In this document: positions 15,899 to 21,365 of the stretch, in pieces
How positions within the stretch are numbered: position 1 is the first letter of the stretch
How the letters are laid out: each line of letters opens with the position of its first letter
Source: Cavenderia fasciculata
Lineage: Eukaryota > Evosea > Eumycetozoa > Acytosteliales > Cavenderiaceae
Reading direction: 5' to 3'
Length of the DNA: 64,000 nt
Assembly: GCF_000203815.1 (NCBI RefSeq)
Contig: NW_004457624.1
Location: forward strand, 1,488,001 to 1,552,000
Position numbers and translations under genes: made by a program
Notes under the pieces: generated by a model
Told to the model about the DNA's origin: nothing
What the model saw: the letters and a program-made list of their open reading frames with translations, nothing else
Database searches by the model: none

Positions 15899-18800
15899 AT
15901 GAAGAAGAAGAAAATAAAGAACCAACTACAATCTACTACTTCTACTTCTACTACTAGTAGTACTTCTACTACTCCTGTAGTATCACAGACAACAACAACA
16001 ACAACAACAACAACAGCTACTGCTCAACAACAACAACAACATGAAGAGGAAGAAGAAAATGAAGAAGGTTCAGTGTTGTTTCAAATCATTAGACCAGATT
16101 TTACATATGATGATTATCATCAAATGGTTGGTTCGATAGACACATCAAAGCATATGGGATCAATGGAAATGCTCGTCGAAGGAGAGGCATTACATCTATG
16201 TAATGTGTTTGAGGTATTGGTGGAAGAGGGATTTTGTCAACCTGACCCTGCCCCGCTTAGTTCATTGTTCCTCATGTGCTCAAGTCTTAATCTTTCAGAT
16301 ACACTCGATGAAAATGAGTTTAGACAAACTTACAAGTTGTAAGTAACTTTTATAATATAGAATGAAGATAAACTAACCTTTTCTCTCTCTCTCTCTCTCT
16401 ATCTCTAGAGAAGATTCACATTTTTATGATAACATTCAAATACTTCAAGAGATGGACAAGAAAGCATTATTCAAAATCATTCTGATGCATGCTTGTTTAA
16501 TGAGTGACACGTTGTTGAAATTCATAGCAGTGTTTTTACCCTACATTGCTCCAAAACTGATTTATGAGGTGGTATTTGGTTTATATTATCTACCTACCAT
16601 TGTAACGGTTATCCGTTTTGAAGAGGTCACCAGAGAATACCGTCAAGAATTGATTCAAGTCTTGGTTAATGCAAATCATCGTAATTTGTGGAGTTGTATT
16701 GTAAGAAGAAAGACAACACTATGATGATAATGATGATGATGGTACTGATTTGTTAATTTAATTTTTTTTTTGAACTTAGGGTCAAGTAAAAGTAGAAAGC
16801 TTATTAGATCATAGGAAACACAAGTGCCCGTATTATATAGCAACTACAGGTGTATTGTACAATAGACAGACGAAATTGGAGATGAGATTGACAGCAAGAG
16901 AGTTTGAACTTTGTCTCAAGTTATTGCCACCTTCCGACACCAAGTTTAAAAAGGGAGAGAAATCAACCAATCTCTTCCTAGGAGTTGACCTTCAACCAAT
17001 CGATCATGCCATCAGACTGGGCGATATCCAATTGATTAAGGACATTATCGACTATAATCCAGAACTCCTCAAGACTGGTTGTGTCATTTTTTCGTGCGTC
17101 GTCTTTGCCAAACCAGATATACTGGCACTCATTATCCGCTCTGCTCCAGAGCTGGCCAAAAACCCACCAACCGGGTCGTCCAATTACACAATCGAAGAGT
17201 TGTGTGTCCATTTTTGTTGCGGAGAAATGCTGCGGATGCTCTACCACGCAGGACTCGAGGTTGAAAAGATTCGACGTCATCGAGTAACAGAAAAAAGACA
17301 TCTTTTGACATCGACTACGATTAACAACCGTGACATTTTGACGATGGAGGTGCTCTTTCAGCGTCCTACCCCTATCCTCTTTAAAATATCGGCCACTGAC
17401 TTTTGCCAGCTCATTACAGATACCGAGGTACTGGCCTATCAAGTCTTACTACATTTGCACACGGTACGAAGAATGCGCATACCTCCCTTTCTATCCGAAA
17501 TACACACAGAACCAGGATCCAAACTGCCAACTCTTGCTTTTGCAACTTCTCCTCTTATAGCCGGCTTTTTAATCAGTCTTTATCCAGAAGCCGCCACTGT
17601 CACGTTTACACCAAAAGATTTTATCGAATTTGCCCCTCATTTACAGCCGTACTCGGCCCCCCTCAATGTTGTTGGTCTCAATATTACAAATCATAGATTC
17701 GAACTGGCTAAATACATCCTGTTAAAATACCCGGTCAACACATTTTTGGATCCCTTTGTTTGCCAAACCCTGGCGACCGATGCATCTGTCTTTGGCAAAG
17801 ACTCACAAGAATTGGCTCCATGGATTGCATTTGCAAAAAAGAAAAATTTGTCGATTATTGATGATTTGGTCAAAGGTTGGGGTAAGGAATTAAGTGTTGG
17901 AGGCGGAGGAGGAGGAGGAGGACCAAAAAAGAAAAAAAAAGTTACAAACAAACAAAAACAAAAAGAAAATGAAAAAGAAAAAGAAAAAGAAAAAGAAAAT
18001 GTAACAACCAACAACAACAAAAAAGATACGATGGCGAACAATAATGTAAAGAAAAAGGATGATAATCAAATCAGTAAAAGTTTAAATCCAGAATCAACCA
18101 GTACAACTACGACAACTTCAACAACTGCAAAAATTGAAATTGATCAATGTCAAATATGTTTTAAAGAAATACCATTGTCTGAAATGAACTCTCACTATGA
18201 CACTCAACATTTTAAAGATCAAGACAAACAAAAGAAAAAGGAATCAACACCTAAAAATCAACCACCTGTAGTATCTCCTTCTAAACCACTTCTTCAAATT
18301 AAACCAGATCCAATAGTATCACCAACGAATCAAAAAGCCAACCAATCTTCACCCAACTCAAAACAAATCAATGTCAACAAGGTAAAAGTTGATAAGAAAC
18401 AACAACAAGAAGAATTATTAAAGCGATACAATATTGTTGAAAGTGAATTGGATCGTACAGTTGGTAAATTTAAATTTAGTAGAAAGGAAAAATATATTGT
18501 CGGACGTGGTAGCAATGGTACATTGGTATATATGGGAATGTGGAGCGAATTCAAAGTGCCTGTTGCCATTAAACAAATGCACAAGGCATTTAACGAAACT
18601 GGTCGTGTGGCAGAGGAAATCGATCTCATGATCAAACTGTCAAATGAACTGGGATCCTCAAATATGGTTCGATACATTGACAAGGAGGAAGACGACTTGT
18701 TCTTTTATCTTGGTGTCAGTCTCTGCGATTGCTCACTACAAGAAATGTATGAAAACCCAGATGCACCCGCCCACATTCAACAACAAAGAATGCAAATCGA

Positions 18801-19695
18801 TAAAATGGCTGCTATCAAAGATATGATTAGCGGCGTAACATTCCTTCACCAACACAATGTTGTACACAATGATTTAAATCCACGTAATATCTTGCTCAAA
18901 GAAGGTCGGTTGTTAATCTCTGATATGGGTTTGAGCAAGATGCTGTCGGTCGATAGTTCATTCTCTCTTACTCATTCACCCACTGGAACGGGTGGATACC
19001 ACCCCGCTGAGATTATCACCGGACAGCGCAAGACAAAGTCTGTGGATATCTTTTCACTTGGGTGTCTCATTTGCTATGTACTTGGTGATGGCAAGAGCCA
19101 TCCATTTGGCAATGACAAGTGGATGCGTATGAGTCGTATCATGAACGACCAACCAAACGTGTCCGAGGCACTACCCAACGCAAACAAAGAAACAATCGAT
19201 CTAATCTCTCAGATGGTTCTTAAAAACCCTGATAGTCGATCCACTATCGAGGCAGTTGCCAAACATCCATTCTTTTGGACGACACAACAAAAAATGGTAT
19301 TCATCGACACTAGTTGTCAAGCATCGAAATCATCGCTTTGGAATGGTCTTGGTATCACACTCAAGGACACTGTCGACCCTTCACTCAAAACATGGGGCAC
19401 GCAAATCGACAAGAACCTCTTACAATTCCTCGAACAAAATGTAAAAAAACCCTACAACTTTGAGAGTGTCAAGGATCTAATCCGATGCATTAGAAACTGT
19501 CTACAACATTTCCAAGATATTAAACTCGTCAACAATAGACAACAATATTTCGAGAGTTCTGAAACTACATTCCAATATTTCGACTCCCTTTTCCCTCATT
19601 TGGTTATCAATCTCTACATCAAATTTAGATCAAATCCAAATTTTTTAAAATCAAATGTACAAACCAATTTACCTTCATTCTTTGGAAACATATAA
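15899..19695 (+). CDS. IRE1-like (irl-type) soluble kinase with KEN RNase domain
   Basis: Exons 15899-16338, 16409-16700 and 16780-19695 give 1215 residues. A Thr/Gln/Glu low-complexity start is followed by a helical N-terminal region of about 550 residues with faint repeat character, a Gly8 and Lys/Glu linker, and a short Cys2-His2 finger near residue 700 (CQICFKEIP...HYDTQH). The kinase domain begins near 805, with GRGSNGTLVY and VAIKQMHK. A C-terminal KEN domain follows (about 1110-1215). There is no signal peptide, lumenal sensor or TM segment, as in the D. discoideum irlA-F family. The catalytic loop reads VVHNDLNPRN instead of HRDLKPxN, and DFG is DMG. The KEN helix IRNCLQHF keeps Arg, Asn and His at the positions that catalyse RNA cleavage in Ire1. 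A cytosolic RNase regulated by nucleotide binding is plausible. Confidence 0.85.
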
Positions 19696-20090: not shown

Positions 20091-21365
20091 CTAGACTTGA
20101 TAAATTTTAACTACTTTTTTAATTGGACCACGACAAATTGGACAACGATCCACCTTTTGGGCACAAATTAAACAATTTGCCATATGTCCACAGTCCAACA
20201 ATACTGTATCAATTTTGTTTTCAAAACATATTTTACAAATATTATTATTATTATTATTGGTTGTACTTGTTGAACTGGTTGTACCATCATTGGTGTTGTT
20301 ATTATCTATTATTTCATGTTTGTAAATAGTTGGAGAACTTGATCCATCACCACTTGAATAATTAATAGATACTCCACCACCAAGTAAAGGTTGGTATGTA
20401 TTGTGAACATTTCGTCTAAGACATCTTCCAAAAAATCGACTGGCACTATAAATACATCCAGCAACACAAATAAACATTAAAATGGTTCCAAATAATGTTG
20501 AAAAGAATATTATTAAATTAACTAAAAGAAAGAAATATTAGAATATTAGAATCTAAATTCAAAATGGTTGATTGTTTTTCTATTTGTTTTTATACATTAC
20601 AAGTTGAATGTGAACCATTATCAGAATAGACACCACAAGCATATTTTGATTTGAGATAGATTGATGTATTACAATCCTCTGATTCGACATTGATTACTTG
20701 ATAATCTGTAGATTCATCGCAAAGTAATACGACGCTTGTGTTGAAATCCTGAGTCTTGACACAAGGTTGTCCAAAGTACCACAATGTGAAGCCTGATAAT
20801 CCATTGTTTGAATAGGTTAGTGTAGAACCATAGGCAAGAGAATAGGTAGAGCCATCTGAATTGACTTGACACACTACATTGTCATTAGGACATGGTGATG
20901 TATAATTTAGACATAAATTGATATAAAAAGTTGAATTGTTATGTTGAAAAGAAAGTAATGAACTAAATGATGAGAGAGAGAGATTTTGTTTGTTCAAAAA
21001 ATTAATAAATATAATTATATTTTCAAAAAAATAAAAGATATCAACTTTACTTACTATCTTAAAGGTGTAAGATCAAAAGTAACATCATCCAATGTCAGAG
21101 CAGTTGAACATATATCTGTATAAATATGATTGTTTCCACTATCGTCATCGTTAAAGGGATTATTACTATTATGTATTGAAATTTCTTTATTGTTGTTGTT
21201 ATGTTGATCCAAGTCTCTATACACTTGCTTTTCATATTCTTTGGATGGTCCCAATTCTCTTGCTTCTCCTAAACCCACCAACCATAAACAATTTATAATC
21301 GATAACAACAAAAGTAAAAGTAATAATCTAGTTGGCAGAATTATATTATTCATTTTCCTATCCAT
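20091..21365 (-). CDS. Signal peptide-MRH domain-TM-RING finger protein
   Basis: Minus-strand exons 21365-21055, 20962-20601 and 20521-20091 give 367 residues. Residues 1-35 are a signal peptide with an eight-leucine core. Residues of about 80-220 match a mannose-6-phosphate-receptor-homology fold: a DVTFDLTPL strand, FYINLCLNY, regularly spaced cysteines, GLSGFTLWYFGQPC, TSVVLLCDES, and a final EDCNTSIYLKSKYAC. One TM helix follows (about 225-250). After a basic stop-transfer and an Asn/Thr linker comes a C-terminal C3HC4 RING (about 320-358: CKICFENK...DCGHMANC...CPICRG). The lumenal half would bind glycan or a partner, and the cytosolic RING would recruit an E2. The MRH sugar-contact Arg and Glu are not evident. 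The splice phases restore the frame across the TM. Confidence 0.8.

What the first reader, a model, noticed from the sequence alone, without database searches (positions are those of the whole stretch)
20091..21365. Lumenal MRH lectin-like domain joined to a cytosolic RING finger through one TM
The spliced 367-residue protein has a signal peptide, an MRH/Atg27-like domain, one TM helix and a C3HC4 RING at the very C-terminus. Known families: MRH proteins sort glycoproteins (M6P receptors, OS-9, GlcII-beta, Atg27); TM-RING ligases such as PA-TM-RING act on membranes. One polypeptide with both could couple lumenal cargo recognition to ubiquitination on the cytosolic face. The usual MRH Arg and Glu sugar contacts are not evident, so the ligand may not be mannose-6-phosphate. 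I do not know of a described example, but cannot search.
Basis: partly seen in the sequence, partly recalled or inferred. Interest (0 to 1): 0.75.

Follow-up and report, generated by a model that had tools for sequence, protein, structure and literature searches.

The report
Membrane ubiquitin ligase with MRH lectin-like domain
A predicted gene encodes a single-pass membrane protein with a mannose-6-phosphate-receptor-like domain on the lumenal side and a ubiquitin-ligase-type RING finger on the cytosolic side, which could let a cell tag membrane cargo according to what is bound inside a compartment.

Summary
Two AT-rich GT-AG introns join three minus-strand exons into one 367-residue protein: N-terminal hydrophobic segment, eight-cysteine MRH domain, one TM helix (about 225-247), YQPL at 267, C-terminal C3HC4 RING (PF13920, 7.7e-14). 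The lumenal piece passes Pfam's CIMR cut-off (28.4 versus 22.5 bits), though full-length and genome-wide scans missed it. A CI-MPR-only profile gives 47.8 bits versus 12.8 for the best of 2000 shuffles. Of four sugar-contact columns, Gln136 and Glu197 are kept; Arg and Tyr are replaced by Phe177 and Thr203. The RING is IAP-like, not RING-H2. AlphaFold on exon 2 alone failed (pLDDT 35). Transcripts and orthologues could not be examined. Precedent: Tul1/Dsc1, a seven-TM RING-H2 ligase whose lumenal part is modelled as distantly MRH-like (PMC11555709, passages). I call this a new variant of a known kind. The mechanism, a type I endolysosomal E3 whose MRH domain selects ligands, is inferred.

The parts
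21055..21365 (-). Exon 1: N-terminal hydrophobic segment (signal peptide candidate, within residues 4-36), Asn-rich linker, first Cys (C86) and start of the MRH domain
20963..21054 (-). Intron 1, GTAAGT...TTTAG, 92 nt, 18.5% GC
20601..20962 (-). Exon 2: main part of the MRH (CIMR-type) domain with seven of its eight cysteines, Q136 and E197
20522..20600 (-). Intron 2, GTAATG...TTTTAG, 79 nt, 19.0% GC, just before the TM helix; if retained, the frame ends in CNV and a stop and would give a soluble MRH protein
20091..20521 (-). Exon 3: TM helix (about residues 225-247), basic flank 253-262 (RFFGRCLRRN), YQPL motif (267-270), low-complexity linker, C3HC4 RING (zinc ligands C320 to C354), C-terminal tail to V367

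Best explanation
The gene encodes a type I, single-pass membrane RING E3 ubiquitin ligase of the endomembrane system. Its lumenal CIMR-type MRH domain binds a ligand, probably a protein or a non-canonical glycan rather than mannose-6-phosphate. Its cytosolic IAP-type RING, at the very C-terminus, works as a dimer with an E2 to ubiquitinate associated membrane proteins or the receptor itself, sending them to the ESCRT/lysosome route. The YQPL motif, 20 residues after the TM helix, would bring it into AP-dependent endolysosomal traffic. Shown: one open spliced frame, MRH sequence homology, one internal hydrophobic segment, RING zinc ligands. Inferred: signal peptide cleavage, topology, dimer, compartment, ligand, substrates and activity.
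For: Spliced frame with canonical AT-rich introns. RING PF13920 7.7e-14 with seven Cys and one His as zinc ligands. Of 19 PDB sequences matched by the RING at E up to 0.001, the first ten are cIAP1, cIAP2, XIAP and BIRC7 chains, followed by MEX3C, MYLIP, MUL1, CBL and MIB1. R355, right after the last zinc Cys, aligns to Arg in the cIAP1 and cIAP2 alignments shown. Y365, third residue from the end, sits where IAP RINGs carry the tail aromatic that contacts donor ubiquitin (recalled, not tested). MRH: CIMR over cut-off, 47.8 bits versus a shuffle maximum of 12.8 in 2000, eight cysteines in register. Two hydrophobic peaks, within residues 4-36 and 222-256, the second followed by a basic stretch; K/R make up 13 of 121 residues after position 246 and 9 of 193 residues at 31-223; six of the eight N-glycosylation sequons lie before the TM helix. 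YQPL at 267.
Against: No transcript, expression, localisation or activity data. The structure model of exon 2 alone has mean pLDDT 35, so the fold rests on sequence homology. CIMR was not reported for the full-length protein nor at this gene in the genome-wide search. The four CI-MPR rows of the profile were chosen because they matched the query and were aligned together with it, and two of them look like the same repeat in two chains, so the score is favoured. YXX-hydrophobic motifs are common: six occur in the protein, five of them on the lumenal side. No [DE]xxxL[LI] motif was found. Conservation in related species could not be tested, so nothing here shows that the architecture is under selection.
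Confidence: 0.6

Rival explanations
1. The MRH part is not a ligand receptor but a dimerisation or partner-docking module of a quality-control E3, working like the lumenal domain of Tul1/Dsc1 or like OS-9/Yos9 docked on Hrd1. Substrates would be chosen through the membrane or by partners, not through a lumenal pocket.
For: Arg and Tyr sugar contacts are lost, with sequons beginning at N178 and N202 next to both lost positions. Phe also stands in the Arg column of the one CI-MPR segment used here that lacks Gln, Arg and Glu. [quoted passage not shown]
Against: Gln136 and Glu197 are retained in the contact columns. Single TM and IAP-type RING, unlike Tul1. No test of partners was possible.
Confidence: 0.25
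2. Two products: intron 2 retention makes a secreted MRH protein, and the membrane-RING form is minor or a gene-model artefact.
For: Reading from exon 2 into intron 2 stops at once (the frame ending at 20590 closes with CNV and a stop). Intron 2 lies at the border between the lumenal domain and the TM helix.
Against: Canonical, AT-rich intron whose removal keeps the frame. The exon 3 frame has no Met before M240, in the middle of its TM helix, so it does not look like a separate gene.
Confidence: 0.1
3. The lumenal domain still is a phosphomannosyl or mannose lectin with altered contacts, and the protein sorts lysosomal enzymes as an MPR substitute, with ubiquitination controlling receptor turnover.
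For: CIMR homology; Gln and Glu contacts kept. A cited title says that CI-MPR recognises Dictyostelium lysosomal enzymes through its amino-terminal carbohydrate binding site (reference list of PMC7481795).
Against: Arg and Tyr, two of the four contact residues, are replaced by Phe and Thr.
Confidence: 0.1

Closest known systems
Tul1/Dsc1 (Golgi/endosomal Dsc complex E3; Fly1 and Fly2 in Arabidopsis)
   Same: Signal peptide, glycosylated lumenal N-terminus modelled by AlphaFold2 as distantly MRH-like, C-terminal cytosolic RING in one polypeptide (PMC11555709, passages)
   Different: Seven TM helices and RING-H2, MRH similarity described as distant; here one TM helix, a C3HC4 IAP-type RING and an MRH domain detectable by sequence
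PA-TM-RING family (RNF13, GRAIL, Goliath)
   Same: Usually a signal peptide, one lumenal domain, one TM, C-terminal RING; RNF13 binds AP-3 and reaches lysosomes (PMC4021871 and PMC8620429, passages)
   Different: PA domain and RING-H2; here MRH and C3HC4. RNF13 uses a dileucine motif, which is not found here
Plant RMR vacuolar sorting receptors
   Same: Named receptor homology-transmembrane-RING-H2 and listed as vacuolar sorting receptors (PMC10616157, passage)
   Different: RING-H2, and a PA-type lumenal domain (recalled); here C3HC4 and MRH
CI-MPR / CIMR repeat proteins
   Same: MRH domain with the same cysteine columns and two of four contact residues
   Different: One domain instead of 15 (number from PMC7481795, passage), Arg and Tyr lost, RING tail
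OS-9/XTP3-B or Yos9 with HRD1
   Same: MRH domain on the lumenal side working with a membrane RING ligase (PMC4021871, passages)
   Different: There MRH and RING are on separate proteins; here on one
IAP-type C-terminal RINGs (cIAP1/2, XIAP, MUL1, MYLIP)
   Same: RING sequence, Arg after the last Cys in cIAP1/2, position at the C-terminus (recalled for the IAPs)
   Different: No BIR match in the Pfam scan; attached to a TM helix and a lumenal MRH domain

Membership tests
MRH/CIMR domain (PF00878) | Profile score over curated cut-off | tested here: met
   28.4 bits versus 22.5 for the lumenal piece, 27.8 for exon 2; not reported for the full-length protein nor at this gene in the genome-wide search
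MRH/CIMR domain (PF00878) | Cysteine pattern of the domain | tested here: met
   Eight lumenal cysteines each in a column where at least one of four CI-MPR segments has Cys; disulfide pairing not tested
Mannose/M6P-binding MRH lectin | Gln, Arg, Glu, Tyr contact residues | tested here: not met
   Q136 and E197 kept; Arg column holds F177, Tyr column T203. The set Q-R-E-Y is recalled; it stands in 3 of the 4 CI-MPR segments aligned. The figure legend seen in PMC7481795 prints Gln, Arg, Glu, and Arg
MRH fold | Beta-barrel in a predicted structure | tested here: inconclusive
   AlphaFold2 on exon 2 alone, one sequence, mean pLDDT 35; no fold search was run on it
Atg27 (PF09451) / Man-6-P_recep (PF02157) | Profile match | tested here: not met
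   Not listed at E up to 10 for the whole protein or exon 2 (HMMER's filters drop most matches above about 0.1), while an Atg27-like frame of the same genome matches at 1.2e-27
RING finger (PF13920) | C3HC4 zinc ligands and profile score | tested here: met
   51.7 bits versus 27; ligands C320, C323, C335, H337, C341, C344, C351, C354
RING E3 ligase | Ubiquitin ligase activity | not testable with these tools
   needs purified protein
PA-TM-RING | PA domain and RING-H2 | tested here: not met
   No PA family listed; zf-RING_2 is below its cut-off (15.9 versus 27.3 bits) and the ligands are C3HC4
Tul1/Dsc1 | Seven TM helices and RING-H2 | tested here: not met
   One internal hydrophobic segment, C3HC4 RING
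IAP family | BIR domains | tested here: not met
   No BIR family listed in the Pfam scan

The most novel reading that the evidence does not exclude
A one-piece transmembrane receptor-ligase: an MRH domain that has swapped its mannose-phosphate pocket for another lumenal ligand, wired through a single TM helix to an IAP-type dimeric RING, so that ligand-driven clustering in the lumen switches on ubiquitination and ESCRT sorting on the cytosolic face.
Probability: 0.3. Interest if true: 0.75.

Novelty: new variant of a known kind. Interest (0 to 1): 0.5.

Why it matters
MRH lectins and membrane E3 ligases are described as separate subunits in ERAD (OS-9/XTP3-B or Yos9 with Hrd1; passages), and in Tul1 the MRH likeness is distant. 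A compact one-TM protein with both would be a simple system for asking whether lumenal recognition directly drives cytosolic ubiquitination, and how lysosomal sorting works in amoebae.

Tried and rejected
PA-TM-RING membership: rejected, no PA domain listed and not RING-H2. Atg27 and Man-6-P_recep membership: rejected.

Paralogues: the protein search of the own genome gave 17 matches, 3 being this gene's own exons and 14 lying within query residues 235-367, the TM end and RING part. The closest RING relative (L006, 48% over residues 298-366) lies in a 302-aa frame without an MRH match. An MRH profile run over 1714 six-frame ORFs of 40 aa or more from the 54 fetched loci found MRH at this gene (L003, L004, L005, L028), L020, L001/L021 and L024. 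The loci cover 30 of the 39 RING matches, one of the 30 being this gene, with about 1.5 kb on each side. The same profile missed two loci that the Atg27 family finds (L002/L022 and L023), so it can miss divergent MRH domains; the nine RING matches without loci and exons beyond the flanks were not examined. The genome tool also states that its counts are lower bounds.

Relatives elsewhere: viral contigs with the full protein (26 stretches matched a pattern, none confirmed) and genome contigs with exon 2 (24 stretches, none confirmed). These are viral and bacterial/archaeal collections, so this says nothing about conservation in amoebae. Rfam: 0 matches in the window.

Literature: ten searches showed no described single-TM MRH-RING protein in the listings I saw. 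Searches returned 0 papers; two searches listed 12 of 870 and 12 of 616. Only open-licence PMC papers are covered, and annotated eukaryotic protein databases were not available. Passages only were seen of PMC11555709, PMC4021871, PMC7481795, PMC8620429, PMC10616157, PMC5666861 (Dictyostelium ubiquitin ligases; nothing on an MRH-RING protein in the 12 of 14 passages shown) and PMC8669491 (one reference-list entry, not used).

Full report
Gene model. The minus-strand sequence 21365-20091 contains three exons separated by two short introns. Removing 21054-20963 (GTAAGT...TTTAG) and 20600-20522 (GTAATG...TTTTAG) gives 367 residues ending in KVVKIYQV and a stop. The introns are 18.5% and 19.0% GC, the exons 29.5-33.7%. 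Within the limits of my script, 73 GT-AG combinations would keep a frame to the same end, so the model is the most plausible, not the only possible one. No transcripts were available. The exon 3 frame has no Met upstream of M240, in the middle of its TM helix, so a separate TM-RING gene is unlikely. If intron 2 were retained, the frame would end in CNV and a stop and give a soluble MRH protein.

The lumenal domain. The full-length Pfam scan reported only RING families and weak zinc-finger relatives, and the genome-wide CIMR search did not list this gene. The lumenal piece alone reached PF00878 (CIMR) at 28.4 bits against a cut-off of 22.5, and exon 2 alone 27.8 bits; the best stretch is short, 32 residues. 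phmmer against PDB sequences returned eight sequences at E up to 10, all CI-MPR; the best whole-sequence value of 4.4e-7 sums several repeats and the best single-domain value in the alignments shown is 0.0011. A profile from four CI-MPR segments without the query scored the protein at 47.8 bits, E 1.7e-13, against 12.8 bits for the best of 2000 shuffles of residues 26-224. Those segments were chosen from matches to the query and aligned with it, and two of them look like one repeat in two chains, which favours the result.

Sugar contacts. All eight lumenal cysteines fall in cysteine columns. Gln136 and Glu197 occupy two of the four sugar-contact columns; the Arg column holds Phe177 and the Tyr column Thr203. 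Three of the four CI-MPR segments carry Gln, Arg, Glu and Tyr there; the fourth carries Cys, Phe, Leu and Tyr, so Phe at the Arg position also occurs in a repeat without the set. N-glycosylation sequons begin at N178 and N202, each next to a lost contact. A canonical mannose-6-phosphate site is therefore unlikely. AlphaFold on exon 2 alone gave mean pLDDT 35 and decides nothing.

Membrane and cytosolic parts. There are two hydrophobic peaks, within residues 4-36 and 222-256, with the basic stretch RFFGRCLRRN (253-262) on the C-terminal side. By the positive-inside rule (established knowledge) the RING is cytosolic. A signal-peptide predictor was not available. A YQPL motif lies at 267, 20 residues after the helix as I draw it; it fits the YXX-hydrophobic sorting signal (recalled), though such motifs are frequent and five more occur on the lumenal side. 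The RING matches PF13920 at 51.7 bits; of 19 PDB sequences matched, the first ten are IAP RINGs (cIAP1, cIAP2, XIAP, BIRC7), followed by MEX3C, MYLIP, MUL1, CBL and MIB1. The Arg after the last zinc Cys is shared with cIAP1 and cIAP2, and Y365 is the third residue from the end, where IAP-type RINGs carry a donor-ubiquitin-contacting aromatic (recalled). This predicts a dimeric, active ligase, untested.

Genome context. The genome is held as 21 contigs of 31.0 Mb. It contains four Atg27 matches and one CIMR match, L020, in an 888-aa frame where, as a protein, CIMR scores 22.0 bits (cut-off 22.5) and a ricin-type domain 28.9 bits (cut-off 29). No second MRH-RING gene was found in the 54 loci examined, which cover 30 of 39 RING matches, this gene included. 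The profile used missed two Atg27-like loci, so this absence is weak.

Mechanism. I consider a type I membrane E3 most likely: the MRH domain binds a lumenal ligand, probably not M6P, and the dimeric RING ubiquitinates associated membrane proteins or the receptor itself for ESCRT sorting. The sequence parts are shown; ligand, compartment, partners and activity are inferred.

Comparison. [quoted passage not shown] also PMC8620429, passages), and plant RMR sorting receptors (PMC10616157, passage). OS-9 and XTP3 bring MRH domains to HRD1 as separate proteins (PMC4021871, passages). Tul1/Dsc1, of fungi and plants, carries a lumenal N-terminus modelled with distant similarity to MRH domains, seven predicted TM helices and RING-H2 (PMC11555709, passages). 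The present protein has another TM number, another RING type and a sequence-level CIMR match, so I rate it a new variant of a known kind. Ten full-text searches in open-licence PMC papers did not show a described single-TM example in the listings seen.

Noticed in passing
window 16780-19695 (+): 971-aa stop-to-stop frame with a protein kinase domain and a C-terminal Ribonuc_2-5A domain, like the cytosolic part of IRE1 or RNase L (recalled). Whether exons upstream add a signal or TM segment was not examined.
   Followed up: partly
L020 (G000:C14:365092-365304): 888-aa frame combining a ricin-type lectin stretch (28.9 bits, cut-off 29) with a CIMR stretch (22.0 bits, cut-off 22.5; 27.6 bits in the genome search): a possible two-lectin protein.
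   Followed up: partly
L006 (G000:C1:842498-842725): 302-aa frame whose C-terminal RING is the closest in the genome to the window's RING (48% identity); its N-terminal part resembles an SH2 domain by eye only.
   Followed up: no
G000:C14:485911-491228: Cluster of four C3HC4 RING matches of the same type within about 5.3 kb.
   Followed up: no
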